DNA of 36,397 nt from a virus: positions 1-36,397 of IMG/VR virus record IMGVR_UViG_3300029922_000183. The stretch is one strand, 5' to 3'. Shown piece after piece: positions 138 to 16,569 of this stretch. Both the position numbers and the translations under genes were made by a program. Numbering within the stretch: position 1 is the first letter of the stretch; each line of letters begins with the position of its first letter. The notes beneath the pieces were generated by a model. That model saw only the letters and a program-made list of their open reading frames with translations, had not been told where the DNA came from and made no database searches.

Positions 138-210
138 AGGGGTGATGGCGACGGTAGTCTAGCTGCCTTTGAAGCAGTGAATGAGGGTTCGACTCCCTCC
201 GCCCCTGCCA
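138..210 (+). tRNA. tRNA-Gln(TTG)
   Basis: The acceptor strands AGGGGTG and CGCCCCT pair with one wobble. The anticodon stem GCTGC/GCAGT encloses loop CTTTGAA, giving anticodon TTG. The T-arm is GAGGG-TTCGACT-CCCTC, the discriminator is G and CCA is encoded. G73 and a weak 1-72 pair agree with glutamine identity. The D-arm is irregular and short, which is the only weak point. Confidence 0.85.
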
Positions 211-218
211 AGTTTTAT

Positions 219-293
219 GCACCCCTCGTTCAGTTGGTAGGACGCCTGTTTCGTAATCAGGGGACATCGGTTCGAGCCCGATGGGGTGCTCCA
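219..293 (+). tRNA. tRNA-Thr(CGT)
   Basis: Acceptor GCACCCC pairs fully with GGGGTGC and CCA is encoded. The anticodon loop TTCGTAA gives CGT, decoding ACG. The T-stem ATCGG/CCGAT is perfect. The anticodon stem has a T-T mismatch at 31-39. The G1-C72 and C2-G71 pairs together with G35-U36 fit threonyl-tRNA synthetase identity. Confidence 0.92.
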
Positions 294-344
294 AGTTGTA
301 AGGTGCAAACTAAGTAGCTGATAACTGGTGGGCTCCAATCTCAG

Positions 345-355
345 TATTAGAGATA
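345..355 (+). promoter_or_regulatory. leaderless-type -10 box before the HNH gene
   Basis: TATTAG lies 4 nt before the ATG at 355 and there is no Shine-Dalgarno sequence. This is one of at least six similarly placed boxes in the window; transcription would start at or next to the start codon. No clear -35 box is seen. Confidence 0.4.
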
Positions 356-987
356 TGAGCTACAGTAACAACAAAAAAGCAAAGCAGTTAGGGATGCCCA
401 ATGGGACAGCGTGCAACCGTTTATTGAAGCTGGTCTTATTGGACTTGCTTCGAAGGTTGAAAACGAATTTCTGCTTTCGATGCAAAACAGAAATCCTCAG
501 TGTGGAGGATTTGAGCCTCGACCACAAAGAACCATGGTTGGACGCCACACCGGATTTGTTTTGGAATTTAGACAACATTGCATTCTCGCATCGCTCCTGC
601 AATATACGTGCGGCCCGAAGAGACCCTGCGAGATTGAGAGAGACTGTAAGACAACGGTGGTTGAATTCTACACCAAAAGGAAAATCGTGGTGCATGGGGT
701 GTAAGGACTTTCTTATACTTGACCAGTTCAACACCAACCGTACTCGGGTATCAGGGGTGCAGAAATACTGCATTAAATGTCGTTGTAATGGAATCGGAAG
801 AAAGAACACTGCACACCTTCGCAAGTATCAACGACCCTCGACGGCTGAATTGGAAGCAATGTTGATGAAAGAAGGCTACCGAGAGTTGGCTCAGAGATTA
901 AAGGTCAGTCACATGACAGTTCTTCAATGGGCGAAGGATGATGGGCTGACCCACATCCGTAGGAAAAAGTTTGCACCTGTCGTCTAG
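355..987 (+). CDS. HNH homing endonuclease with zinc finger and helix-turn-helix tail
   Basis: A 210-residue protein. The N-terminal part has a CxxC pair (FCFRC), then LSLDHKEPW, then LDNIAFSHRSCN, which together make the HNH metal-finger nuclease core (LDH, N, H..CN). A second CxxC pair (CMGC and CIKC) forms an additional zinc finger around a KFxxNRT-type segment, and the C-terminus (RELAQRLKVSHMTVLQWAK) reads as a helix-turn-helix. Such genes are selfish DNA that cut allelic sites lacking them. An upstream GTG at 328 is in frame, but ATG 355 follows a TATTAG box and matches the usual start of this family (MSYSNNKKAKQLG). The gene ends inside the downstream tRNA-Thr, whose D-arm supplies its TAG stop. 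Confidence 0.9.
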   Translation: MSYSNNKKAKQLGMPNGTACNRLLKLVLLDLLRRLKTNFCFRCKTEILSVEDLSLDHKEPWLDATPDLFWNLDNIAFSHRSCNIRAARRDPARLRETVRQRWLNSTPKGKSWCMGCKDFLILDQFNTNRTRVSGVQKYCIKCRCNGIGRKNTAHLRKYQRPSTAELEAMLMKEGYRELAQRLKVSHMTVLQWAKDDGLTHIRRKKFAPVV

Positions 988-1048
988 TGGCTTAGGACTC
1001 CTCCTTGGTATGGAGGGTACAGGGGTTCGAATCCCCTCAGGTGCTCCA
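973..1048 (+). tRNA. tRNA-Thr(GGT), copy 1, on a tRNA-Glu-like body
   Basis: Acceptor GCACCTG pairs with CAGGTGC and CCA is encoded. The stem CCTCC/GGAGG encloses loop TTGGTAT, giving GGT (reads ACC). The D-arm (GTCTAGTGGC..AGGAC), the 4-nt variable loop and the T-arm AGGGG-TTCGAAT-CCCCT resemble bacterial tRNA-Glu rather than tRNA-Thr. The first 15 nt overlap the 3' end of the HNH gene. Confidence 0.92.
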
Positions 1049-1056
1049 ATCTTAAC

Positions 1057-1132
1057 GCCGGGTTAGCTCAGTTGGTAGAGCATCTGCCTTGTAATCAGAA
1101 GGTCATCGGTTCAATTCCGATACTCGGCTCCA
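1057..1132 (+). tRNA. tRNA-Thr(TGT), copy 1
   Basis: Classic cloverleaf: acceptor GCCGGGT/ACTCGGC, D-arm GCTC/GAGC, anticodon loop CTTGTAA giving TGT (reads ACA), T-stem ATCGG/CCGAT, and encoded CCA. It closely resembles the standard bacterial tRNA-Thr body. Confidence 0.94.
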
Positions 1133-1148
1133 GTTTAGTTGTTTTGCA

Positions 1149-1224
1149 GATGTAGCATAGCGGTCAATGCGCCTCCCTTGTAACGAGGACGCCGTCAGTT
1201 CGAATCTGACCATCTGCTCCAGTT
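1149..1224 (+). tRNA. tRNA-Thr(TGT), copy 2
   Basis: Acceptor GCAGATG pairs perfectly with CATCTGC; D-stem GCAT/ATGC, T-stem GTCAG/CTGAC, and encoded CCA. The loop CTTGTAA gives TGT, the same anticodon as the tRNA just upstream but on an unrelated body. A C-C mismatch closes the anticodon stem. The boundaries may be off by a few bases. Confidence 0.88.
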
Positions 1225-1235
1225 TGAGGTACGAT

Positions 1236-1373
1236 ATGAGAGTTATCAGCATCGCGTTGTACCGATTTGCTCAGGCGCTGTCTTACGTTCTACCTGAGTC
1301 GATATGGGAACCAGTGACCTATCCAATCGACCGATTGCGTTGGTGGTTCGAAAAACATGCACCTGTCGTCTAG
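1236..1373 (+). CDS. small hypothetical protein ending inside a tRNA gene
   Basis: A 45-residue ORF between two threonine tRNAs. GAGG lies 6 nt before the ATG at 1236. The sequence has an amphipathic N-terminal half (MRVISIALYRFAQALSYVL) and an aromatic C-terminal half (RLRWWFEKH). No family is recognised. Like the HNH gene, it ends in the residues APVV and takes its TAG stop from the D-arm of the following tRNA-Thr(GGT). A longer ORF from 1167 would start inside the upstream tRNA and was not chosen. Confidence 0.45.
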   Translation: MRVISIALYRFAQALSYVLPESIWEPVTYPIDRLRWWFEKHAPVV

Positions 1374-1434
1374 TGGCTCAGGACTCCTCCTTGGTATGGA
1401 GGGTACAGGGGTTCAAATCCCCTCGGGTGCTCCA
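1359..1434 (+). tRNA. tRNA-Thr(GGT), copy 2, near-identical to copy 1
   Basis: It differs from 973-1048 at only a few positions: TTAGG to TCAGG in the D-arm, TTCGAAT to TTCAAAT in the T-loop, and CAGGTGC to CGGGTGC in the acceptor, which leaves a G-T pair. The anticodon loop TTGGTAT and encoded CCA are kept. It looks like a recent duplication; the T-loop change removes the usual G57. Confidence 0.9.
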
Positions 1435-1443
1435 ATTTTATGG

Positions 1444-1456
1444 TATTGTTCTTCTA
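1444..1456 (+). promoter_or_regulatory. leaderless-type -10 box
   Basis: TATTGT lies 6 nt before ATG 1456 and there is no Shine-Dalgarno sequence between the upstream tRNA 3' end and the start codon. The spacing would place the transcript start at the ATG. Confidence 0.35.
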
Positions 1457-1674
1457 TGAGTACATTGACGTGGGAAGAACGAAACCAGCGGATTAAAAAG
1501 GAACAGCTTACTGAAGAAGAGTTGGGGACTTTAGTAGGCTGTGCTGTAACCGGAGTGCGGAGATTCTGGGGTCATGGAGCAGAGTATGAAATCCGCTTCG
1601 ATGATGGTCGAACGCTCTACATTACCAAGAGCGACTACACCAACGATGTAGTTTGCATGTTCAAAGAGTTTTAA
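1456..1674 (+). CDS. hypothetical small protein
   Basis: A 72-residue protein that starts MSTLTWEERNQR. A charged helical N-terminus is followed by a compact beta-rich part (GCAVTGVRRFWGHGAEYEIR, then FDDGRTLYITKSDY). The second part has the look of a small barrel or SH3-like fold, but no family is recognised. The start is set by ATG 1456, next to the -10-like box. The gene begins 21 nt after tRNA-Thr copy 2, in the same transcription direction. An orphan tRNA-like 3' tail (GGCTCCA) follows its stop. Confidence 0.6.
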   Translation: MSTLTWEERNQRIKKEQLTEEELGTLVGCAVTGVRRFWGHGAEYEIRFDDGRTLYITKSDYTNDVVCMFKEF

Positions 1675-1737
1675 GCTACGAGTCGTGGCTCCAGTTTCCG
1701 TATTAGTGAGTATTAGTGAGTACGAGGTACTGACTAA

Positions 1738-1929
1738 ATGGGTAAGAAAGTTGAAAAGGGGTTGTGTTGGGAGTTGGATGATTCGGAGTGTGATATCAAC
1801 GCCCCCTCACCGCATTTCACGGATGACAGTAGCGAACGTGAGAACGACTATCTGTACGGGACGTTTCCCGTGCTGATTCCTAAGAGGCCACCTTCAAGGT
1901 TGCAACCTCCGAAGGAACCAAAAGAGTAA
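1738..1929 (+). CDS. hypothetical small acidic protein
   Basis: A 63-residue ORF starting MGKKVEKGLCWELDD, rich in Asp, Glu and Ser, with a proline-rich end (RPPSRLQPPKEPKE). GAGG is present about 10 nt upstream of the ATG. The spacer before it holds a tandem duplication of GTATTAGTGA at about 1700-1719. No family is recognised. A second ORF from 1685 in another frame is lower quality and overlaps it. Confidence 0.5.
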   Translation: MGKKVEKGLCWELDDSECDINAPSPHFTDDSSERENDYLYGTFPVLIPKRPPSRLQPPKEPKE

Positions 1930-1930
1930 A

Positions 1931-1986
1931 TCGCGCAATATAAGTGGCGCGATTCAGGTTTTAATTGCGTGATTCGGAATCGCGCC
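1931..1986 (+). other. candidate H-type pseudoknot
   Basis: Two long helices interleave: TCGCGCAAT (1931-1939) with ATTGCGTGA (1964-1972, one G-T pair), and GGCGCGATTC (1946-1955) with GAATCGCGCC (1977-1986, perfect). The order S1, S2, S1', S2' is that of an H-type pseudoknot, or of two alternative hairpins. The same bases can be read as direct repeats of AATCGCGC and GCGYGATTC. It covers a possible TTG start at 1965, so a translational switch is possible. Confidence 0.45.
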
Positions 1987-2144
1987 ATAACGCCGCTTGT
2001 GGCAAGCAAGCCACTTGGGTTCGTCACACGCAGTTTGCCGGTACTCATCCTTTCTGCACTGAGTGTGCAAAGAAGGAAGATGATTTTGGTGAAGAGTCCA
2101 GCTATGTGGTTTGGGAGGAGCTTTTACATGAAGTTGCTCAGTAG
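1965..2144 (+). CDS. putative small zinc-finger protein
   Basis: A 59-residue reading frame starting at TTG 1965 with AGG 5 nt upstream. Near the start HNAACGKQATWVRH and then HPFCTECAKK give a Cys..CxxC zinc-finger pattern; the rest is acidic and helical (WEELLHEVAQ). No ATG is available, so the start is uncertain. The frame continues beyond the TAG at 2142 without another stop until 2316 (next entry), so this could be the front half of one gene with an in-frame amber codon. Confidence 0.45.
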   Translation: MRDSESRHNAACGKQATWVRHTQFAGTHPFCTECAKKEDDFGEESSYVVWEELLHEVAQ

Positions 2145-2318
2145 TTGGTTCTTCTTCGTGCCTCCATTCACGATCCTGCCTCGGTGGAAGTTGGCAGTTA
2201 TGCGTCAGTGGCTGTGGAGGTATCAGAGGTATACACAGCCGGGAGTTCGTGGATGTCCTATGAATGGGGATGCTTTCGGTTGTATCGGATTTTGGATGAG
2301 GAAGCTTGTCAATTTTAG
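2145..2318 (+). CDS. reading frame continuing past an amber codon
   Basis: Fifty-seven codons in the same frame as the preceding zinc-finger ORF, beginning with TTG directly after its TAG. It encodes plausible protein (LRASIHDPASVEVGSYASV, then SSWMSYEWGCFRLYRILDEE). It ends with TAG at 2316-2318, the base before the tRNA-Thr acceptor at 2319. It may be a separate gene with a TTG start, the readthrough part of the upstream gene, or the tail of a gene broken by a nonsense mutation. TAG is a real stop elsewhere in the window (thioredoxin), so general recoding is not supported. Confidence 0.4.
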   Translation: MVLLRASIHDPASVEVGSYASVAVEVSEVYTAGSSWMSYEWGCFRLYRILDEEACQF

Positions 2319-2394
2319 GCCGGAGTAGCTCAGTTGTTAGAGCGCCGTCTTGGTAAGACGGAGGTCACGGGTTAGAACCCCGTCTCTGGCTCCA
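2319..2394 (+). tRNA. tRNA-Thr(GGT), copy 3
   Basis: Acceptor GCCGGAG/CTCTGGC, D-arm GCTC/GAGC, perfect anticodon stem CCGTC/GACGG around TTGGTAA, T-stem ACGGG/CCCGT, and encoded CCA. This is the normal threonine body. The T-loop reads TTAGAAC instead of TTCGAAC, so the near-universal C56 is A, which could weaken the elbow contact with G19. Confidence 0.9.
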
Positions 2395-6092: not shown

Positions 6093-6166
6093 TCCGGGCT
6101 CGTTCAATGGTAGGACAACGGACTTTGACTCCGTGAATTGAAGTTCGAATCTTCAGCCCGGAGCCA
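6093..6166 (+). tRNA. tRNA-Gln(TTG), second copy
   Basis: Acceptor TCCGGGC/GCCCGGA is perfect; D-stem GTTC/GGAC has one wobble; stem ACGGA/TCCGT encloses CTTTGAC, giving TTG; T-stem TGAAG/CTTCA. Discriminator G and encoded CCA are present. U1-A72 with G73 is textbook glutamine identity. It lies alone, 3.7 kb from the main cluster and directly after a stop codon. Confidence 0.95.
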
Positions 6167-6274: not shown

Positions 6275-6307
6275 TTGCTTTTGATTTTTTGTGGTATTGT
6301 ATACCTT
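6275..6307 (+). promoter_or_regulatory. candidate promoter of the RNA-element array
   Basis: TTGGTT at 6272-6277 and TATTGT at 6296-6301 are separated by 18 nt, followed by TATACC. Initiation shortly downstream would start a transcript at or just before the first RNA element at 6308. The -10 has the same TATTGT form as the box before the gene at 1456. Confidence 0.4.
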
Positions 6308-6375
6308 GAGTCGGCTATTGCAGCCCTTCCTTCTACATCTATTGGACAGAGCTTAGGTCTGCTGCTCTCCGACTC
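6308..6375 (+). ncRNA. structured RNA element 1 (tandem family)
   Basis: A perfect 7-bp closing stem, GAGTCGG (6308-6314) with CCGACTC (6369-6375), encloses the core CTATT-GCAG-CCCTTCCTTCT on the left and AGGT-CTGC-TGCTCT on the right. GCAG (6320-6323) pairs with CTGC (6359-6362), and CC/GG can extend that helix across a mismatch. The middle is variable. A separate hairpin, TGAGTG/CACTCA, lies between this element and the next. Confidence 0.7.
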
Positions 6376-6412
6376 GCAAATTTTGAGTGTTGTTGATTGC
6401 ACTCATCAAGTA

Positions 6413-6495
6413 GAACCGGCTATTGCAACCCTTCCTTCTCACTTAATAACCCCCGCAAGGGGATTACCGATAACAGGTTTGCTGCTTTCCGGTTC
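6413..6495 (+). ncRNA. structured RNA element 2
   Basis: The closing stem GAACCGG/CCGGTTC is perfect and unlike element 1 in sequence. The core CTATT..CCCTTCCTTCT and TGCTTTCC is kept. The inner helix is GCAA (6425-6428) with TTGC (6479-6482), a compensatory change from GCAG/CTGC. The variable middle holds a CCCC-GCAA-GGGG hairpin with a GNRA tetraloop. Confidence 0.72.
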
Positions 6496-6500
6496 ATAAC

Positions 6501-6586
6501 ATAGGTTGGCTATTGGAGCCCTTCCTTCTAAAAATCAGAGCCGCAAGGCTCACTTCGAGAATCAGGTCTCCTGCTTTCCAACCTAT
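6501..6586 (+). ncRNA. structured RNA element 3
   Basis: The closing stem ATAGGTTGG/CCAACCTAT is 9 bp and perfect. The inner helix is GGAG with CTCC, a further compensated pair. The middle holds a GAGCC-GCAA-GGCTC hairpin. The element ends 11 nt before ATG 6598 and 17 nt before ATG 6604, so its 3' stem is just upstream of the AAAGG ribosome site of the TerD-like gene. Confidence 0.72.
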
Positions 6587-6603
6587 ACTGAAAGGTAATG
6601 TCC

Positions 6604-8814
6604 ATGTCTGTACAGTCCATTGTTTTGCGTCGTTCGAACAAGGTTATACTCCCGGTTCGGAACACCGTGTTTGTAGCCAAGTCCCCTGTGTCTCAGGCCC
6701 TTGTTGCTACTTTCAATCTGAACATTCAGTCTCTCGGCTACACCCTATCTGCCGATGCAATCAAGGCTATCTTGAAGTTGGGTGTGACCTCGGCCACTCT
6801 TGTGTTTGATGAAGTCCTGTCGAGCCTCAAGGAAATCAAAGGCGTACGCAGTTACAGGCCCATGTACCCGAACTTTCCGAAGCAGGTCATCGAGGCTTTG
6901 GATGCAGAACTGTACCTCAACGCGACGATGCACTATTTCAGCTTCTTGCTGGTTGACCTCACGGGTGACTCCAACAAGATTTGGTTGCCGAAGTATGCGA
7001 AGGATAAGCGTGAGCCACTTGACGAGAAGATTGAACTGCGTGTGCTCGGCGTGGCCGACAAGGTGGCTGTTGACATCCTGACCGACCGTATCGCTACGAG
7101 CAACACATCCCTCTCAGCATCGGACAAGGACGACTTGCGTACACTGCTTACCAGTGGGTATGGGCGGAACATTGACGACATGCTTTCGCGGATTAGCAAC
7201 AAAGAGAACCTCGCCTTCGTGAGTTCCATCATCTTGTCGTCGGGATCAGCAACTGACATCACTCCATATTTCCGCACGGCCACCGACATCCTACGTTTGG
7301 CGACCGCGATGAGTGGTGGTGACGTGTCGCTTAAGGACGACTCCAAGTTCAAGAAGTTCAAAAACTCAGAGCGTCGGTTCTTACTTGGCCTGTTGGAGCC
7401 TATCGGTAACAAGGTTGAGGACATGCTCCGCTGGCGCGAGCGTTGGGTGCGTCTTGGTCATCCACTGCATCCGGGTGAGTCTGCTAAGCGGTTTCCGACC
7501 ACGGCTCGGGCGTTCACCATTCTCCGTAACAATGAACATGTGGACACGTTCCGCACACAGGTGGAGTCCGCTGTTCGCTCCGGACATGTACTTCAGGCTG
7601 TGACGCTGTTGACTCAGCATCCGGGTGAGTTCGCTCGTCGGCTCGACCACGTGTTACGTCAAGCCCCCAACGCTCACACCCAGCTTCGTGTTGTTGATGC
7701 TTTTTTGTCAGTGGCTCACGAGGTCTCAACCCCGGTTCTGTTGCAGGTACTCGCTCACTTTGAGCATCGTGATGAAACTGACCTGCGTGTTGTGTTCCCG
7801 AAGGGGAACGTGGCGAAGGTTATGTCTCTGGATAAGCCCTTGGCGAAGCTGCCAAAGATAATCACTAATGCTGTCTCTGTTGGTATCGAGTCAGTCCTGT
7901 TGTCTCGTTTCTCAGCATTGCCGGATATGGGTAAAGTATATCTCGACCCGGCATTGCAGGATGTTCTCTTACCGTTCTCGCAGCGTTCGGCCAACAAGGC
8001 TCTCCGCACCTTGGTGCGTGGCTCCAAGTTGTCCTTCGGTGACGAGAAAAACACCATTCGTTTCTTCATCTGGTGGAAAGACGAAGATAAGTCCGATAAT
8101 AGCTTCGACAACGGACGGGTTGACCTTGACCTCTCGGCGTGTGCCTATGATGAGAATTGGGTGAGCATGGGAGCGGTGACGTATTACAACATGCGTGAGC
8201 AGTACGCAGTTCACAGCGGTGATATCACTTCGGCACCGAAAGGCGCGAGTGAGTTCATCGACGTGGATATTGCGGGGGCTGTTAAGGCTGGTGCGCGTTA
8301 CATCGTTCAGACGGTTCACAGCTTCACCGGCCAGAAGTTCTCTGACGTGCCGGAGGCTCTCGCTGGATTCATGCTTCGTGATAAGCCCCAGTCTGGTGAG
8401 GTATACGACCCTCGTACTGTTGTTGACCGGGCGGATGTGACGACCGAGGCCACCTCTGTTGTGCCGATGATTATCGACATCGTTGACCGCAAGGTTATTT
8501 GGGTTGATGCAGCGATGACAACTGGAGGTAGCCGTGGTTACCGTTATTTCTCTCGTGGCAACAACGTAGCTTCAACCCGTGGTACAATTGAATTGTTGGG
8601 TAAGGCGTTCACCAACATTCACAAGCCGACTCTGTACAGGTTGTTAAGTCTCCACGCAGCCGTGCGTGGTGAAGTAGTAGCTACCAAGGAAGAGGCGGAT
8701 GTGGTGTTTTCGGTGGAAGCCGGTACTCCTTTTGAACTCGACCGCATCGCTTCCGAGTTCATGGCAGACGCCGTAAAGGAATCTGCTGTGAAGCGGGAGG
8801 CGGTGGCAGTCTAA
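6604..8814 (+). CDS. large helical protein with C-terminal TerD-like domain
   Basis: A 736-residue protein. ATG 6604 is preferred because AAAGG lies 8 nt upstream; ATG 6598 would leave only 2 nt. Residues 1-460 are mostly helical, including repeats such as HPGEFARRLDHVLRQA. Residues about 470-680 look like the TerD beta-sandwich: FFIWWKDED, then RVDLDLSACAYD around residue 507, then VTYYNM, HSGDIT and ARYIVQTVHSFTGQKF. TerD proteins bind calcium and belong to tellurite and stress-response systems. Helical-plus-TerD proteins also occur in bacterial loci proposed to act in RNA repair (SCO0854/MXAN_6230-type), which this one resembles from memory; a search is needed. It sits between structured RNA elements, and the window also has an RNA ligase. 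A capsid or tail role seems unlikely. Confidence 0.65.
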   Translation: MSVQSIVLRRSNKVILPVRNTVFVAKSPVSQALVATFNLNIQSLGYTLSADAIKAILKLGVTSATLVFDEVLSSLKEIKGVRSYRPMYPNFPKQVIEALDAELYLNATMHYFSFLLVDLTGDSNKIWLPKYAKDKREPLDEKIELRVLGVADKVAVDILTDRIATSNTSLSASDKDDLRTLLTSGYGRNIDDMLSRISNKENLAFVSSIILSSGSATDITPYFRTATDILRLATAMSGGDVSLKDDSKFKKFKNSERRFLLGLLEPIGNKVEDMLRWRERWVRLGHPLHPGESAKRFPTTARAFTILRNNEHVDTFRTQVESAVRSGHVLQAVTLLTQHPGEFARRLDHVLRQAPNAHTQLRVVDAFLSVAHEVSTPVLLQVLAHFEHRDETDLRVVFPKGNVAKVMSLDKPLAKLPKIITNAVSVGIESVLLSRFSALPDMGKVYLDPALQDVLLPFSQRSANKALRTLVRGSKLSFGDEKNTIRFFIWWKDEDKSDNSFDNGRVDLDLSACAYDENWVSMGAVTYYNMREQYAVHSGDITSAPKGASEFIDVDIAGAVKAGARYIVQTVHSFTGQKFSDVPEALAGFMLRDKPQSGEVYDPRTVVDRADVTTEATSVVPMIIDIVDRKVIWVDAAMTTGGSRGYRYFSRGNNVASTRGTIELLGKAFTNIHKPTLYRLLSLHAAVRGEVVATKEEADVVFSVEAGTPFELDRIASEFMADAVKESAVKREAVAV

Positions 8815-8822
8815 AGTTTCTT

Positions 8823-8880
8823 GACTATCACCCTCTAATTAGAGGGGCTATTGAAGCCCTTCCTACTAAGGGCGATAGTC
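8823..8880 (+). ncRNA. divergent RNA element 4 masking a ribosome binding site
   Basis: The closing stem GACTATC (8823-8829) with GATAGTC (8874-8880) can extend by one pair into the A of ATG 8881. Inside are a palindromic hairpin CCCTCT-AATT-AGAGGG (8831-8846) and GCCCTT-CCTACT-AAGGGC (8856-8873). The core words CTATTG and AGCCCTTCCT match elements 1-3, but the right half AGGT..TGCTYT is absent. The AAGGG that would bind the ribosome is locked in the second hairpin. Confidence 0.6.
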
Positions 8881-9504
8881 ATGGTATTTTACACGGTATA
8901 CAGAACTCAGAACATCACAAACGGCAGGTATTACTTCGGCGTCCACAAGACTAGGAACCCGTATGATGGGTACCTTGGGTCGGGAAAAGTGCTCCGGACT
9001 GCGGTTAAAAAGTATGGTGAATCCTCGTTCATCAAGAACATATGTTTTGTCTTCGACAACCCTGAAGACGCTTTCTCCAAAGAGTTTGAATTGATTGAAT
9101 CGTATCGCGAAGACCCGTTGTGCTATAACCTGAGACAAGGGGGTAGCGGGGGTTTCGACTACATCAATCAGGCGGGGCTATCACCGGGATTTAACTACAT
9201 AAATGCCAACGGACTGGCTGCTGACAACAGGTTAAACCCTAAGCGAATTGAAGCGGTCAGGGCATGTTTGGTGGCACACCCGCGCTCTCACCCTTGTTCA
9301 GAAGAAACAAAACTCAAGTTACGGAAGGCTTTGGAAGGTCGGATATTGGGTGAACGTACCCAAGAGACCAGAGAGAAGATACGAGCCGCAAACAAAGGCA
9401 AGGTTCTATCTGAGGAGACTAAAGAAAAAATACGACAATCTCGATTAAATCGTGGTATTATTAGACATTGCGCGGCTATTGGAGCCCTTCCTTCTAAAAA
9501 TTGA
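8881..9504 (+). CDS. GIY-YIG homing endonuclease with NUMOD3 repeats
   Basis: A 207-residue protein. The N-terminal FYTVYR and RYYFGVHKTR are the GIY-YIG catalytic strands, followed by GYLGSGKVLRTAVKKYG and a catalytic-type Glu in EFELIESYR. The C-terminal half has tandem NUMOD3 DNA-binding repeats (SEETKLKLRKAL, QETREKIRAANKGK, SEETKEKIRQSRL). AAGGG lies 8 nt before ATG 8881, inside the element-4 hairpin; an upstream in-frame TTG at 8851 lies within that hairpin and was rejected. The final residues AAIGALPSKN are translated from the left half of RNA element 5, so the gene has no spacer from the array. It is a mobile gene inserted into the RNA-element array. Confidence 0.9.
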   Translation: MVFYTVYRTQNITNGRYYFGVHKTRNPYDGYLGSGKVLRTAVKKYGESSFIKNICFVFDNPEDAFSKEFELIESYREDPLCYNLRQGGSGGFDYINQAGLSPGFNYINANGLAADNRLNPKRIEAVRACLVAHPRSHPCSEETKLKLRKALEGRILGERTQETREKIRAANKGKVLSEETKEKIRQSRLNRGIIRHCAAIGALPSKN

Positions 9505-9543
9505 CCGATAATCAAACTAAAAGGTCTCCTGCTCTCCGCCAAT
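9467..9543 (+). ncRNA. structured RNA element 5
   Basis: The core CTATT-GGAG-CCCTTCCTTCTA on the left and AGGT-CTCC-TGCTCT on the right matches elements 1-3, with GGAG (9481-9484) pairing CTCC (9526-9529). The closing stem GCGG/CCGC is 4 bp and extends to ATTG/CAAT after a bulged C. GGTATT at 9454 could instead pair with AATACC (9541-9546), suggesting that an 11-12 nt stretch was inserted in the left arm. Its first 38 nt are also the 3' end of the endonuclease gene. Confidence 0.65.
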
Positions 9544-9550
9544 ACCATCG

Positions 9551-9580
9551 AAACCCCCAAGTAAACTTGGGGGTTTTAAC
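9551..9580 (+). terminator. intrinsic terminator
   Basis: An 11-bp perfect stem AAACCCCCAAG/CTTGGGGGTTT with a TAAA loop, then TTAAC. It ends the RNA-element and endonuclease block. The T-tract is short but overlaps the stem. Confidence 0.8.
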
Positions 9581-10728: not shown

Positions 10729-10740
10729 TATTAGTCTACA
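10729..10740 (+). promoter_or_regulatory. leaderless-type -10 box before the helicase
   Basis: TATTAG, 5 nt, then ATG 10740, with no Shine-Dalgarno sequence. The string AGTATTAGTCTACATG differs by a single base from the thioredoxin start region at 3518-3532. TTGATA lies 20 nt upstream as a poor -35 candidate. Confidence 0.5.
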
Positions 10741-13526
10741 TGCAACTGAATGAAGAACAGATAGCCGCAGTAGAACACCCACTCGGGCAACCAGCTTGTC
10801 TCATCGCCGGAGCCGGATCAGGCAAGACTCGCGTTCTTACCGAAAGAGTAAAATGGCTTATCGCTCAAGGGATTCCACCTAGAAAGATAGCGGCGATAAC
10901 CTTTACTAATAAGGCCGCAAACGAATTATTAGACCGGCTTCAACTTGATGGTGCCTCCTTCGATGTCCCCAAAGTATCCACCATTCACTCTATTGCCCTC
11001 TCAGCGATACGCCGTGACCCGGTTGGTTTTGGTCTCCAGCAAAAGGTGACACCGCTGGACGATTATGACCAGAGTCAGATGATTCGCCGGATTGTAGAAC
11101 GGACGGTTGATGTTAAGGAAAAAGGTATCAGCCTTGGTTCTTATGTGTATGGTTTCCTTGATAAGGTGGGCTATCACCGCGCTCGGGGTCTCGGGTTTTG
11201 TGTGGACTACACCGATGAGGTTCACGAGCAAGCGTTGGTTGCCCACGCAGGGCACCACGCTCTTGAGCCGTTTGATTTGCAGATTTGGAAGCTGTACGAA
11301 GCTGAAAAACAATCTTGTGGTTCGATAGATTTTGACGACATGCTTTGCCTGTTTAACCGTCGCTGTGAGCAAGACTCAGCATGGAGAGCCCAACTACAGA
11401 AGGCATTTGATGTTGTGCTGGTTGATGAGGCACAGGACTTGTCTGTTCCGCAGTGGGGGGTAGTTAACGGGCTTCTCGCTCCGGCTAATCCAAACCTAAT
11501 GACGGTGGGAGATTTGAGCCAGTGCCAACCTCCGGGAACTAAGGTTAAGGTCACTACCTCCCTTTCAAGGGGTAGCGTCAAATCAAGGTTCGAATTGCGT
11601 AACATCGAAGATTTGCGCGACGGTGACTTAGTTCCTACTTGGCACAAGCGTGACCAAATATCCTATCATTCAGGGCGGAAAATAAAAGTAGCCCACCGCC
11701 CCTATTCAGGGGCATTACTTAAAATCACCACTGAAACCAGTTCGACTGAATGCACCCCCAATCACTGGAATTGGGTGAGATTCAATAAAAACACAACAGG
11801 AAAATACATGGTGTATCTCATGTATCGTTCTGATTTGGGGTTTAGAGTGGGTCTTAGCATTTTTAAGCGCAGTACAGGGAAGGGCACTACAGGTAGTTAT
11901 GGGCTCTCCTCTAGGTTCACTCAAGAAAAGGCTGATAAGGCTTGGATTTTGGGCGTCTATGACACTCGACAGGAAGCGGAAGCATGGGAAGAAATCATCT
12001 CACTAAAATATGGCATCCCTGAGTCCCTTTTTGAAGCTACAGTGTGCTGGCACAAAACTGATGAGCTAATTAGGCTAATCTTCTCTCACGCTAACCCTGA
12101 AGGGGGTCAGCGTTGCTTATCAGACCACGGTCTTATTTTTGAACAACCGATTCTGTCTCCACGTGCAGACGGGTTTATAGGTAGAAGTTGGCGTGGGTAC
12201 TTCAAAACAGCAGCGGCTAACATCCTGCCGGGATTGATGGACATCCCAATTGAGGGACGGAACAAAAGCGTACCTATTATTGCTTGTCCATCTAGGCACT
12301 ATGAGGGGTTAGTCTACTCCCTAGATGTTGAAGAAGAGCACACGTATATAGCTGATGGGTTAGTCGTAGGGAACTCCATCATGGGATTCAATGGGTCTGC
12401 ACCACACCTTCTCAAGGAGTTTTCAGAGGGGTGGAGAGGGCACACACCCATACTGTATCGTATCGCACGCAACCATCGCAGCCTTCCGCGCATCGTATAT
12501 CTCGCTAACCACATTCAGTCAAAGATGACTGACACCATTCCACTCAAGATGCAAGTCTTCCGTGGTGACTCGGATAACAAGGGCACCATCGAACTAACTC
12601 GTGCTTCGATGCCCCTTGACATCGCACTGATTATCGCCGGAGAGATTTCCAAAGATAACCAGCGTAAGAAGGATCAGATTCCATATAAAGAGAACTGCAT
12701 CCTTGTTCGCAGTGCCCGTCAGATACCTGACCTTGAGAGCGCACTGGTGCGTCATCGCGTCCCCTATCAGATACGCGGGGGTCGCGGACTTCTTCAAACA
12801 GAAGAGATTCGTGATGTGCTTTCATACTTGAGGCTTGCCACCAACCCCAAAGATTTTACTGCTCTCGCTCGTGCAGTCACCGTACCCAAGACAGGTGCTG
12901 GTGATGTGACGTTGGAAAAGATTCGCAAGACGGCCAATGATAAGTTCGGCGGTGACTTGATTAAGGGCTGCACCTCTGTTGACAAGTTGTCAACGTTTGT
13001 AATGGCGTTGGAACGGTTTCAGAAGTTCGGTGACTATCCGGTTCAGGCTCTTGACCAAATCATTGACTACATGAACTATAAGAGCTATGTTTCCAACAAG
13101 TACAAGAAGGAACCCGACAAGATAAAAACCAAACTGGAAAACATCGACCGCTTCAGGGAGCTTGTACGTGGTCTTTCCGAAGATCATAAGATGTCCACTG
13201 AAGACCTTGTATTCCAACTTACTATCGACCGGGCACGTGAGGATGACAAGGATGGTATGGTCACGGTGTCCACTATCCACTCGGCAAAGGGGCTGGAGTG
13301 GCGGAGGGTTTATGTGACGAATGTAGTTGAAGGTAGTTTACCTCATCGGTTTTCAATGGGGAGTGAGGCCGAAATTGAGGAGGAGCGCAGACTTTGGTAC
13401 GTGGCCGTGACTCGCGCTAAAGACGCCCTCACCATTTGTGTACACTCCATGGAGCAGAACGAGAGCAACACTCGGAGAGTAACACCCAGTCGGTTCTTGT
13501 CAGAGATTGGAGTCATCAATGAGTGA
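10740..13526 (+). CDS. UvrD/PcrA-type superfamily 1 helicase containing an intein
   Basis: A 928-residue precursor; removing the 284-residue intein leaves about 644 residues, near the UvrD/PcrA norm. Motif I is AGAGSGKT (Lys29), motif Ia is AITFTNKAANEL, motif II is VVLVDEAQDL, and motif III GDLSQ is split from SIMGFNGS by the intein. Later come NHRSLPRI (motif IV region), TVSTIHSAKGLEW (motif V) and YVAVTRAKD (motif VI). It is a 3'-5' ATP-driven DNA helicase for replication, repair or recombination. Activity should depend on protein splicing, because the intein separates motif III from its following Ser. The start has a leaderless-type box. The stop overlaps the next gene. Confidence 0.95.
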   Translation: MQLNEEQIAAVEHPLGQPACLIAGAGSGKTRVLTERVKWLIAQGIPPRKIAAITFTNKAANELLDRLQLDGASFDVPKVSTIHSIALSAIRRDPVGFGLQQKVTPLDDYDQSQMIRRIVERTVDVKEKGISLGSYVYGFLDKVGYHRARGLGFCVDYTDEVHEQALVAHAGHHALEPFDLQIWKLYEAEKQSCGSIDFDDMLCLFNRRCEQDSAWRAQLQKAFDVVLVDEAQDLSVPQWGVVNGLLAPANPNLMTVGDLSQCQPPGTKVKVTTSLSRGSVKSRFELRNIEDLRDGDLVPTWHKRDQISYHSGRKIKVAHRPYSGALLKITTETSSTECTPNHWNWVRFNKNTTGKYMVYLMYRSDLGFRVGLSIFKRSTGKGTTGSYGLSSRFTQEKADKAWILGVYDTRQEAEAWEEIISLKYGIPESLFEATVCWHKTDELIRLIFSHANPEGGQRCLSDHGLIFEQPILSPRADGFIGRSWRGYFKTAAANILPGLMDIPIEGRNKSVPIIACPSRHYEGLVYSLDVEEEHTYIADGLVVGNSIMGFNGSAPHLLKEFSEGWRGHTPILYRIARNHRSLPRIVYLANHIQSKMTDTIPLKMQVFRGDSDNKGTIELTRASMPLDIALIIAGEISKDNQRKKDQIPYKENCILVRSARQIPDLESALVRHRVPYQIRGGRGLLQTEEIRDVLSYLRLATNPKDFTALARAVTVPKTGAGDVTLEKIRKTANDKFGGDLIKGCTSVDKLSTFVMALERFQKFGDYPVQALDQIIDYMNYKSYVSNKYKKEPDKIKTKLENIDRFRELVRGLSEDHKMSTEDLVFQLTIDRAREDDKDGMVTVSTIHSAKGLEWRRVYVTNVVEGSLPHRFSMGSEAEIEEERRLWYVAVTRAKDALTICVHSMEQNESNTRRVTPSRFLSEIGVINE
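11523..12374 (+). mobile_element. intein in helicase motif III, with a GIY-YIG-like insert
   Basis: Residues 262-545 of the helicase. Block A is CQPPGTKVKV with Cys1. Block B is seen as STECTPNHWNWV (TxxH form). The end is VYSLDVEEEHTYIADGLVVG-N with Ser+1 in the host protein. The penultimate residue is Gly instead of the usual His, a known but minority variant. Between blocks lies KYMVYLMYR..FRVGLSIFKR, then SRFTQEKADKAWILGV, then RQEAEAWEEIISLKYGIP. That segment resembles a divergent GIY-YIG-type domain rather than the common LAGLIDADG insert; whether it still cuts DNA is unclear. Confidence 0.88.
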
Positions 13527-14061: not shown

Positions 14062-14176
14062 GTTTTTAATCGTTGACATGCACACCCATATCGACCCCCA
14101 TGAAGAGTTGGAAGCAATGGTCGGCCACGACATGAAAATCATCCCCATTACATTGGGGTTGGAAGAGGAAGATTGA
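14054..14176 (+). CDS. micro-protein upstream of the NAD+ genes
   Basis: Forty residues starting MPEFLIVDMHTHIDPHEELE, acidic, with several histidines (HTHIDPH). It overlaps the previous gene by 8 nt and its TGA overlaps the ATG of the adenylyltransferase gene (TGATG), which favours translational coupling. No family is recognised. Confidence 0.5.
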   Translation: MPEFLIVDMHTHIDPHEELEAMVGHDMKIIPITLGLEEED

Positions 14177-15120
14177 TGCAAAAACCCAGTTATGGTGTAC
14201 TCGTCGCCCGGTGCCAAGTGCATGAATTGCATGAAGGGCATCTCTGGTTGTTCAACGAAGTCAAGGCACGTAACTCGCGTGTCATTATTTTCCTTGGCGT
14301 CAAACCAATCGGAGCCACTTACAAGAACCCTCTTGACTTCGAGACCCGCAGGGCGATGATTCAAGCAATTCCCGCCTACAAGGATTTCAATATCCTTCCA
14401 CTTCCCGACATGCCGACCGATGAAGCGTGGTCGAAGGTTCTGGATGGTCGCATCCGTGAACTTTGTGATTATGGCGAAGTGACGCTATACGGCTCTCGTG
14501 ATTCTTTCACAAAGCACTACACCGGCTCGTTTACGCCCGTTGAACTGACCATGCCACACGACCTTCGCAGCATCAATGGTACGGAGATTCGGGCTGGCCT
14601 CACTAATCAAATCATTGCCTCCGCCGACTTCCGGGCCGGGGTCATTCATGCCATCACCAATCTCCGTCCGCAGGTCAAGGCGACCGTGGACATCGTGATT
14701 ACCACCGAGACCCTGCTATCGTGGTCGCATCCCGGCCCTGACGCCGCTAGGTTGACGCGGTTCTTTCTCCTCGGCCAGAAGCCCGGTGAAACGTGCTGGC
14801 GCTTCATCGGGGGTTTCTCAGAGCCCACCACACCTTCCTACGAATTCGATGCGGCTCGTGAAGCCATGGAAGAGACCGGCTTGCCGATTGAAGACCTGAA
14901 GTATATTGGCTCAACTCTGGTTCCGGACTGGCGTTGGGCAGGGGAGCCCGACCAAATCAAGACGCTCGTTTTTGTTGGAACGTCCATGACCATGGGGGGT
15001 AAGGCCAACGACGACATCGCCAAGGTGAAGTGGGTTAAGGCCAGCGAACTCTCCGAGTCGTTGTTCAGTGATGTTCACAAACCCATTTGGCACATCGTCA
15101 AAAAGCACTTCAATCTGTAA
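14176..15120 (+). CDS. bifunctional NMN adenylyltransferase / Nudix hydrolase
   Basis: A 314-residue two-domain protein. The N-terminal half has the nucleotidyltransferase HxGH motif (HEGH, residues 19-22) in the strand-helix start GVLVARCQVHELHEGHL, and a C-terminal RSINGTEIRAGL like the ISSTxxR motif. It would join NMN and ATP to give NAD+. The C-terminal half is a Nudix domain with REAMEETGL at residues 228-236; the Nudix box is stretched before its first Glu. This architecture is known from bacterial NadM-Nudix enzymes and from phage KVP40. It lies 12 nt upstream of the nicotinamide phosphoribosyltransferase gene. The ATG overlaps the upstream TGA. Confidence 0.92.
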   Translation: MQKPSYGVLVARCQVHELHEGHLWLFNEVKARNSRVIIFLGVKPIGATYKNPLDFETRRAMIQAIPAYKDFNILPLPDMPTDEAWSKVLDGRIRELCDYGEVTLYGSRDSFTKHYTGSFTPVELTMPHDLRSINGTEIRAGLTNQIIASADFRAGVIHAITNLRPQVKATVDIVITTETLLSWSHPGPDAARLTRFFLLGQKPGETCWRFIGGFSEPTTPSYEFDAAREAMEETGLPIEDLKYIGSTLVPDWRWAGEPDQIKTLVFVGTSMTMGGKANDDIAKVKWVKASELSESLFSDVHKPIWHIVKKHFNL

Positions 15121-15132
15121 AGGGGGCAACAT

Positions 15133-16569
15133 ATGGCACTTTCGAAATTGTCGCAAGAGTTTGATGGTAGGGGAGACCTGTACAAATACTCCCACTGGCG
15201 GATGTACCCACCGGGCGCTCGACGCCTTGAATCGTACCTCGAATGCCGCATCGGTGCGAAGTATCACAAGACCGTGCCCTTTGGTCTCCAGTACATCTTG
15301 GAGGAATACTTCACCGGCAAGCGCCTTTCGAAGGATGGCATTCTTCGTCGCCAGTGGAAGATTGACCAAATGATGGGACCGGGAACCTTCAACATCAAGG
15401 GTTGGCTGGATATGCTCGAAGCACACGATGGCGCTCTACCCATTCGCATCAAAGCGATTCCTGAGGGCACCGTATTGGACAACTCCAACGCTCTGCTGGT
15501 GCTCGAAAGCGTTGACGACCGTTTCATCTGGTTCAACAACTTCGCTGAAACTGCCATTATGCAGTCGTGGTATCCCACCACCGTCGCCTCGGCTCAGTTC
15601 GCCAAGCGACAGATGTTCCTCGAATTCCTGTACAAGACAGGCGACCCCGGTCTCATCGACTACAAGTGGGTGGACTTTGGCTATCGTGGTGTGTCTTCGC
15701 AGGAGTCAGCGGCTCTTGGTGGTGCGGCTCACTTGCTCAGCTTCAAATCGAGCGACACGATGATTGCAGACGACTTCGTGGAAGCCTACTACCCCGATTT
15801 AACCGGCGCTCCACACACGGTGAAGATGGGCAGCGTTCCAGCCTCGGAGCACTCCACGACAACCTCGTGGGGCAAGGAAAACGAGCCTCGTGCTATCGGC
15901 AACATTCTGGAAGCGTACCCCACAGGTATTGTCTCCATTGTTGGCGACTCGTACGACTACGAGAACTTTGTTCGCGCCATCATCGGTGGTAAGTATCGCG
16001 ACAGCATCCTTCGCCGTGAAGGTGTGGTTGTGGTTCGCCCAGACTCTGGTGACCCGGCCACGATGGTCCTTCGCTCCTGCCAGTGGTTGGAAGAAAATTT
16101 TGGTGCCGATTACAACGACAAGGGCTACAAAGTTCTCAACAAGCACGTTCGTGTCATTCAAGGTGATGGCATTGACTACGACTCCGCTTACGAGATTCTT
16201 GCCACACTGGAGCGTTCCAAATACTCGCTGGACAACCTTACCCTCGGTGAGGGTGGCGGAGCACTCCAGAAGGTCAACCGTGACACACAGCGCACTGCTC
16301 TGAAAGCGTCGGCCATCGACATTGAAGGGGTGTGGCACGATGTGTTCAAAGACCCCAAGACCGACCCCGGCAAGGCATCGAAGGCCGGTCACCTCGCGGT
16401 AGTCTGTGTGAATGGGGTATACCGCACCATCCCCAAGCAGGAAGGTATCACCTACCCGCAGGATTGCTTGGTTCCTGTGTTCGATACTGGAAAGATTCTG
16501 AAGCGTTATGGCTTCGATGAAGTTCGGACTCGGGTTGTGGCAAACGACGGAACGGCGGAAGACTTTTAA
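15133..16569 (+). CDS. nadV: nicotinamide phosphoribosyltransferase (NAMPT)
   Basis: A 478-residue protein, the usual NAMPT length. Conserved blocks are DLYKYSHWRMYPPG (N-terminal substrate region), DFGYRGVSS, SVPASEHST with catalytic His240 (the His247 equivalent of the human enzyme), RPDSGDP for the phosphoribosyl group, and LGEGGGALQKVNRDT. It condenses nicotinamide with PRPP to make NMN, which the preceding enzyme turns into NAD+. AAGGGGG lies 8 nt before the ATG. The pair forms a complete two-step salvage route and is known in phages as a pathway that rebuilds NAD+ after host defences destroy it. Confidence 0.96.
   Translation: MALSKLSQEFDGRGDLYKYSHWRMYPPGARRLESYLECRIGAKYHKTVPFGLQYILEEYFTGKRLSKDGILRRQWKIDQMMGPGTFNIKGWLDMLEAHDGALPIRIKAIPEGTVLDNSNALLVLESVDDRFIWFNNFAETAIMQSWYPTTVASAQFAKRQMFLEFLYKTGDPGLIDYKWVDFGYRGVSSQESAALGGAAHLLSFKSSDTMIADDFVEAYYPDLTGAPHTVKMGSVPASEHSTTTSWGKENEPRAIGNILEAYPTGIVSIVGDSYDYENFVRAIIGGKYRDSILRREGVVVVRPDSGDPATMVLRSCQWLEENFGADYNDKGYKVLNKHVRVIQGDGIDYDSAYEILATLERSKYSLDNLTLGEGGGALQKVNRDTQRTALKASAIDIEGVWHDVFKDPKTDPGKASKAGHLAVVCVNGVYRTIPKQEGITYPQDCLVPVFDTGKILKRYGFDEVRTRVVANDGTAEDF

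What the first reader, a model, noticed from the sequence alone, without database searches (positions are those of the whole stretch)
6308..6586. Three tandem copies of an unrecognised structured RNA with covarying helices
Three elements share CTATT-(4 nt)-CCCTTCCTTCT on the left and AGGT-(4 nt)-TGCTYT on the right. Each is closed by a perfect but different 7-9 bp stem. The inner 4-nt helix covaries (GCAG/CTGC, GCAA/TTGC, GGAG/CTCC). The middle is variable and twice holds a GCAA-tetraloop hairpin. Conserved single-stranded words with compensated stems are the signature of a functional RNA. I do not recognise it as a known riboswitch or ribozyme.
Basis: partly seen in the sequence, partly recalled or inferred. 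Interest (0 to 1): 0.93.

Follow-up and report, generated by a model that had tools for sequence, protein, structure and literature searches.

The report
Y-RNA-like RNAs partnering an uncharacterised protein
Three look-alike RNAs in a virus that infects bacteria belong to a previously uncatalogued RNA family that sits beside one uncharacterised protein gene in many bacteria and phages and sometimes carries an inside-out imitation of a transfer RNA, so together they look like a hidden cousin of the Ro60/Y-RNA machine.

Summary
Window 6308-6586 holds three elements with one anatomy: P1 stem, CUAU, 9-position P2, UCCUUCU, variable insert, P2', GCUYU, P1'. A fourth full copy is at 9472-9539 and a half copy at 8846-8867. 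Rfam 15 has no family for them. The same element flanks homologues of the adjacent 738-aa ORF (6598-8814; NCBIfam NF041916, phrog_33734) in diverse phages and bacteria. Covariation is very strong: 96% of cells paired versus 60% shuffled, and own-partner pairing far exceeds swapped controls in elements picked by sequence alone. In 539 bacterial genomes, RNA and protein occur together in 90, RNA alone in 1, protein alone in 1 (a gene fragment), neither in 447. In several loci the insert is a circularly permuted tRNA mimic, the module of bacterial YrlA Y RNA. I conclude these are Y-RNA-like non-coding RNAs, most likely bound by the NF041916 protein. The protein is not detectably Ro60/TROVE, so they are not Y RNAs by membership. 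Binding, expression and effector are inferred. Riboswitch or autoregulation is less likely because about 16 loci have elements only downstream of the gene; self-cleavage and type III toxin-antitoxin remain untested rivals.

The parts
6308..6375 (+). Element 1: P1 GAGTCGG 6308-6314 / CCGACTC 6369-6375; CTAT 6315-6318; P2 6319-6327 / 6355-6363; UCCUUCU 6328-6334; GCTCT 6364-6368
   Evidence: R1 match 64.0 bits, E 1.1e-14 (in the seed alignment)
6413..6495 (+). Element 2: P1 GAACCGG/CCGGTTC; P2 6424-6432 / 6475-6483; insert with CCCC-GCAA-GGGG hairpin
   Evidence: R1 56.5 bits
6501..6586 (+). Element 3: P1 ATAGGTTGG/CCAACCTAT; P2 6514-6522 / 6564-6572; insert with GAGCC-GCAA-GGCTC hairpin; ends 11 nt before the ORF start
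   Evidence: z -4.8; R1 59.7 bits
9472..9539 (+). Element 5: full copy downstream of the gene, overlapping the end of the GIY-YIG-like ORF, followed by a GC-rich hairpin with T tail at 9552-9577
   Evidence: R1 50.9 bits
8846..8867 (+). Element 4: only the 5' half (GGCTATTGAAGCCCTTCCTACT), lying inside a long hairpin 8822-8881 directly before the endonuclease ORF; also present in relative L001
6598..8814 (+). 738-aa ORF, predicted protein partner: phrog_33734 (E 3e-100), NCBIfam NF041916 (448 bits, cut-off 600); helical N-terminal half, beta-rich TerD-like C-terminal part
   Evidence: co-occurrence
6295..6300 (+). Possible -10 box (TATTGT), kept in position in L001 (TACTAT) and L003 (TATTAT) just before element 1; the consensus scan did not call it
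   Evidence: sequence reading; not called
8881..9504 (+). Probable GIY-YIG homing endonuclease (NUMOD3 motif, E 3e-6; GIY-YIG assignment by eye) inserted between the gene and element 5; absent from the syntenic site of L003-L005

Best explanation
The elements are non-coding RNAs of a new family that works like bacterial Y RNAs. Shown: a conserved fold (P1, CUAU/GCUYU internal loop, P2, nearly invariant UCCUUCU, interchangeable insert), near-perfect genomic co-occurrence with the NF041916/phrog_33734 protein, and in some members an insert that is a circularly permuted tRNA mimic like the YrlA effector module. Inferred: the protein encoded next to them binds the conserved P1/loop/P2/UCCUUCU module. 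The insert (short hairpin or tRNA mimic) acts as an exchangeable effector or gate that positions a second factor (nuclease, tRNA enzyme) or blocks the protein's substrate site, as YrlA does for Rsr. The RNAs would be transcribed with, and processed from, the mRNA of their partner. In phages, several RNAs with different inserts beside tRNA genes suggest a role in tRNA/RNA quality control or in countering host tRNA-targeting defences. That last step is the least certain.
For: Covariation: 14 pairs over 56 sequences, 96.2% of cells paired versus 59.8% shuffled and 41-54% slid, 282 double-change cells versus 85. Unbiased test: of 111 elements picked by the 5' sequence alone, 98 pair at 13-15 of 15 positions with their own 3' side, versus 6.7% with swapped partners; 52 pair perfectly, versus 0.7%. 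Co-occurrence: Brevibacillales 22/22 with 17 having neither; Paenibacillales 65 both, 1 RNA-only, 1 protein-only fragment, 134 neither; Pseudomonadota 3/3 with 296 neither. Second gene copies carry their own RNA. No other gene is a widespread neighbour across 99 loci. tRNA-like modules lie inside elements: YrlA-model hits at positions 23-88 in L103, L090, L037, L039, L033 and full length in L001; 14 elements with T arm followed by D arm; cloverleaf-like folds with the acceptor stem closed by a short loop. Published bacterial Y RNA is a circularly permuted tRNA mimic (PMC13355120), with a basal stem binding Rsr and a tRNA-like effector domain binding PNPase (PMC8394870).
Against: No binding, expression or phenotype data. 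The protein shows no TROVE relationship: Pfam none, hhalign probability 0.1%, no Foldseek PDB match below E 0.001. The window's own three elements carry short hairpins or unstructured inserts, not tRNA mimics. Many elements sit just before the start codon, as a cis-regulatory leader would. L038, L093 and L119 have the gene without a detected element; genome G278 has an element without a detectable protein. Co-occurrence counts ignore phylogeny.
Confidence: 0.7

Rival explanations
1. Cis-acting regulatory leader: the RNA senses the protein or a ligand and controls translation of the downstream gene (riboswitch or autoregulatory site).
For: Tandem copies directly upstream of one gene family, with gaps to the aligned gene start of mostly 10-140 nt in bacteria; conserved loops between compensated stems.
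Against: 38 of 143 scored elements lie downstream of the gene, and by my reading about 16 loci have elements only downstream (for example L022 with seven, L023, L048, L066, L078, L098, L103, L111). Interchangeable inserts, including tRNA mimics of over 80 nt, are unusual for a switch.
Confidence: 0.14
2. Type III toxin-antitoxin-like locus: tandem RNA repeats neutralise a toxic protein encoded downstream.
For: Tandem RNA elements beside a single protein gene, in phages and bacteria, with nearly strict co-occurrence.
Against: From established knowledge, ToxN-type toxins are small RNases with near-identical short repeats. Here the protein is about 700 aa (up to 880 with a RING domain), copies differ, bacteria often have one or two, and many lie only downstream of the gene. 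Toxicity untested.
Confidence: 0.06
3. Self-cleaving ribozymes that process the transcript.
For: Small, closed by a variable stem, with conserved unpaired words; several copies flank the ORF.
Against: No match to Rfam ribozyme families. One-to-one link to a single protein family is not typical of ribozymes. Not tested.
Confidence: 0.05
4. A DNA-level feature, such as homing or recombination sites or selfish repeats.
For: An endonuclease ORF sits between a half copy and a full copy in the window.
Against: Compensatory base-pair changes and one orientation relative to the gene; only 1 of 143 scored elements was on the opposite strand. Present in many bacteria with no such endonuclease as a shared neighbour.
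Confidence: 0.02

Closest known systems
Bacterial Y RNA YrlA (Rfam RF02553) with Rsr/Ro60
   Same: Basal stem formed by the two ends, a conserved protein-side module, and in several members a circularly permuted tRNA mimic inserted at the distal end; gene for the partner encoded beside it.
   Different: Basal module sequence is different (CUAU, UCCUUCU, GCUYU); Rfam YrlA scores stay below gathering (best 45.4 versus 69) and mostly match only the tRNA-like part; the protein is not TROVE; window copies lack the tRNA mimic.
NCBIfam NF041916 (MXAN_6230/SCO0854 family RING domain-containing protein)
   Same: The window ORF is clearly homologous (448 bits, E 6.6e-134).
   Different: Below the curated cut-off of 600; no RING finger was found in the phage protein, unlike L106. 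I found no described RNA partner for this family.
Vault RNA (RF00006)
   Same: A weak match (26 bits, cut-off 34) to an element in L017; vault RNAs, like Y RNAs, associate with a TROVE protein (TEP1) by established knowledge.
   Different: E 0.19, below threshold; probably chance similarity of the terminal stem.
Type III toxin-antitoxin RNAs (ToxI-like)
   Same: Tandem structured RNAs beside one protein gene in phages and bacteria.
   Different: Repeat size and divergence, position downstream in many loci, large non-ToxN protein.

Membership tests
Bacterial Y RNA (YrlA) | Large stem formed by 5' and 3' ends | tested here: met
   P1 plus P2, 96% of cells paired with covariation
Bacterial Y RNA (YrlA) | Circularly permuted tRNA-like module | tested here: inconclusive
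   Met in relatives (L001, L022, L025, L033, L039, L079, L090, L103, L115), absent from the window's own elements
Bacterial Y RNA (YrlA) | Partner is Rsr/Ro60 (TROVE domain) | tested here: not met
   Pfam none; hhalign 0.1%; Foldseek none
Bacterial Y RNA (YrlA) | Rfam RF02553 gathering score of 69 bits | tested here: not met
   Window none; relatives at most 45.4 bits
Bacterial Y RNA (YrlA) | Physical binding of the partner and tethering of PNPase | not testable with these tools
   Needs biochemistry
NF041916 protein family | Curated score cut-off of 600 bits | tested here: not met
   448 bits, E 6.6e-134; clearly homologous but below the equivalog cut-off
TerD domain (C-terminal part of the protein) | Profile match to TerD | tested here: inconclusive
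   hhalign probability 44%, E 2.3e-4 over 115 columns with aligned D-L-D-S and HSGD motifs; no Pfam hit
Riboswitch / cis leader | Located in the 5' leader of the gene it controls | tested here: not met
   38 elements downstream of the gene; about 16 loci with downstream copies only (my reading)
Known self-cleaving ribozyme | Rfam ribozyme match or cleavage activity | tested here: inconclusive
   No Rfam match; cleavage not testable here

The most novel reading that the evidence does not exclude
A previously undescribed ribonucleoprotein system, spread over many bacterial phyla and carried by phages, in which a non-TROVE protein (helical repeat/TerD-like, sometimes with a RING finger) is paired almost obligatorily with its own Y-RNA-like RNAs. 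tRNA-mimic effector modules are gained and lost in the same slot, implying convergence with, or a very ancient common origin with, Ro60/Y RNA.
Probability: 0.5. Interest if true: 0.93.

Novelty: new variant of a known kind. Interest (0 to 1): 0.87.

Why it matters
It would give an RNA partner to a protein family known only as RING-domain protein or unknown function, extend Y-RNA-like biology beyond Ro60, and show that the tRNA-mimic module is an exchangeable part used with more than one RNA-binding protein. The partnership is directly testable in culturable Brevibacillus or Paenibacillus. In phages it points to an RNA-based way of handling tRNAs during infection.

Tried and rejected
TROVE/Ro60 identity of the protein: my first hypothesis, not supported by Pfam, hhalign or Foldseek. 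Anti-Shine-Dalgarno role for UCCUUCU: not supported, since L033 and L039 have UACUUCU in its place. Conserved gene neighbours as a functional clue: none shared widely; Thg1 upstream in L042 and a tRNA nucleotidyltransferase near the gene in RpAliso are anecdotal. YrlA-model hits outside elements (L039:97-168, L037:925-984) fall at or next to annotated real tRNA genes and were discounted. A genome-contig scan with alignment A1 failed and was redone with A2. Literature searches found no description of this RNA or of a partner for NF041916; key Y RNA papers were not in the library.

Full report
What is there. The window is a 36.4-kb virus record with eight tRNAs. At 6308-6375, 6413-6495 and 6501-6586 lie three copies of one element: P1 (7-9 bp, different in each), CUAU, a 9-position helix P2, UCCUUCU, a variable insert, P2', GCUYU and P1'. 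The bipartite word is far beyond chance (6 matches against 0.25 expected) and all three fold better than shuffles (z -2.5 to -4.8). A fourth full copy is at 9472-9539. A 5' half copy at 8846-8867 lies inside a long hairpin that is shared with relative L001.

It is a family. Pattern scans of viral contigs found relatives. In L001-L005 the elements keep both positions, in front of and behind the same ORF. Homologues of that ORF were then collected from viral contigs, GenBank phages and bacterial genomes. Almost every locus whose flanks are present carries the element: a strict scanner finds it in 79 of 99 loci. Of the other 20, seven are cut off at the gene start, most of the rest have covariance-model or by-eye matches, and L038, L093 and L119 show none. 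Organisms include Bacillota, Planctomycetes, Acidobacteria, Armatimonadetes, Bacteroidota, Pseudomonadota and Actinomycetota.

Structure is under selection. In alignment A3 (56 sequences) the proposed pairs form in 96.2% of cells, versus 59.8% after shuffling and 41-54% when slid; 282 cells have both sides changed versus 85. Those seeds had been chosen partly by pairing, so I ran a test without that bias. Of 111 unique 5' halves found only by GGC[TC]AT-N9-TCCTTCT, 98 pair with their own downstream strand at 13 or more of 15 positions, against 6.7% for partners taken from other elements and 4.3% for shuffled downstream sequence. 52 are perfect, against 0.7% and none seen.

It belongs to one protein. 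The ORF matches phrog_33734 and NF041916, the MXAN_6230/SCO0854 family, with no Pfam hit. Whole-genome searches with the RNA model and with the protein gave the same genomes: 22 of 39 in one order; 66 and 66 of 201 in another, of which 65 are shared; and 3 and 3 of 299 in a phylum sample. In total 90 have both, 1 RNA only (G278, no homologue seen near the RNA), 1 protein only (G361, a C-terminal fragment) and 447 neither. Fisher tests give 2e-11 and 8e-51 for the two orders, ignoring phylogeny. Extra gene copies have their own RNA, including G007's second locus. No other gene is a widespread neighbour.

It has an exchangeable insert. Inserts are usually 10-50 nt, but a class of about 80-97 nt contains a T arm followed by a D arm, that is, a tRNA read 3' half then 5' half, with the acceptor stem closed by a short loop and the anticodon stem leading into the element. 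Rfam's YrlA model hits these inserts at positions 23-88, below its gathering score, and the L001 element over its full length. The bacterial Y RNA is described as a circularly permuted tRNA mimic (PMC13355120) whose basal stem binds Rsr and whose tRNA-like part binds PNPase (PMC8394870). This shared modular design is the reason for calling the family Y-RNA-like.

What it is not. The protein is not detectably TROVE. Its C-terminal part resembles TerD weakly, and some bacterial members carry a RING finger. AlphaFold gives a fair model (pLDDT 77.5, pTM 0.73), helical in the N-terminal half and beta-rich in the C-terminal part. Elements are also found downstream of the gene (38 of 143 scored), and about 16 loci have them only downstream by my reading. 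That argues against a riboswitch.

Mechanism. Shown: conserved fold, covariation, co-occurrence, orientation and position, and tRNA-mimic inserts in some relatives. Inferred: expression as RNA, binding by the neighbouring protein, and an insert acting as gate or tether. A -10-like box just before element 1, kept in L001 and L003, suggests transcription begins at the element, but the scanner did not call it. The proposed phage benefit (tRNA/RNA quality control or counter-defence) is the most speculative step.

Limits. E-values of the RNA model are rough. Seeds match it by construction and some seed genomes recur in the genome searches, so the weight lies on genomes that were not seeds and on the near absence of matches where the protein is missing. 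The literature library lacks the main Y RNA papers, so prior description elsewhere cannot be excluded; Rfam 15 and the searches made here show none.

Noticed in passing
L037 1846-2148; L039 1933-2154: Permuted tmRNA (RF04321, 108 and 129.5 bits) upstream of the partner gene in Rhodobacter phage RcXuper and Ruegeria phage RpAliso, next to the Y-RNA-like array.
   Followed up: no
window 10740-13526: UvrD-type helicase interrupted by what looks like an intein (insert between GDLSQ and SIMGFNG, ending HTYIADGLVVGN); a similar insert is in L001.
   Followed up: no
window 14173-16569: NUDIX protein followed by a nicotinamide/nicotinate phosphoribosyltransferase (NAMPT_N plus NAPRTase), a possible NAD+ salvage pair.
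   Followed up: no
window 138-2394 and 6093-6166: Eight tRNAs of only two kinds: six tRNA-Thr and two tRNA-Gln, an unusual set.
   Followed up: no
window 8822-8881: Half element inside a long hairpin immediately before the endonuclease start codon, conserved in L001; could be a remnant or control the endonuclease.
   Followed up: partly
L003 2432-2530: Another potentially structured stretch closed by a 10-bp stem (TTGACGAGGG/CCCTCGTCAA) between the gene and its downstream element.
   Followed up: no
L034 2510-2900: Mycobacterium phage WXIN has about five divergent elements in a row (CAGGCTC...CTTTCA...TTTCCCTG) that model R1 barely sees, so the family is broader than the model.
   Followed up: partly
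L042 1869-2651: Thg1 tRNA-His guanylyltransferase gene directly upstream of the element and partner gene in a Gimesia genome.
   Followed up: no
L142 3687-3754: Orphan element (50 bits) in a Paenibacillales genome with no partner gene seen nearby.
   Followed up: partly
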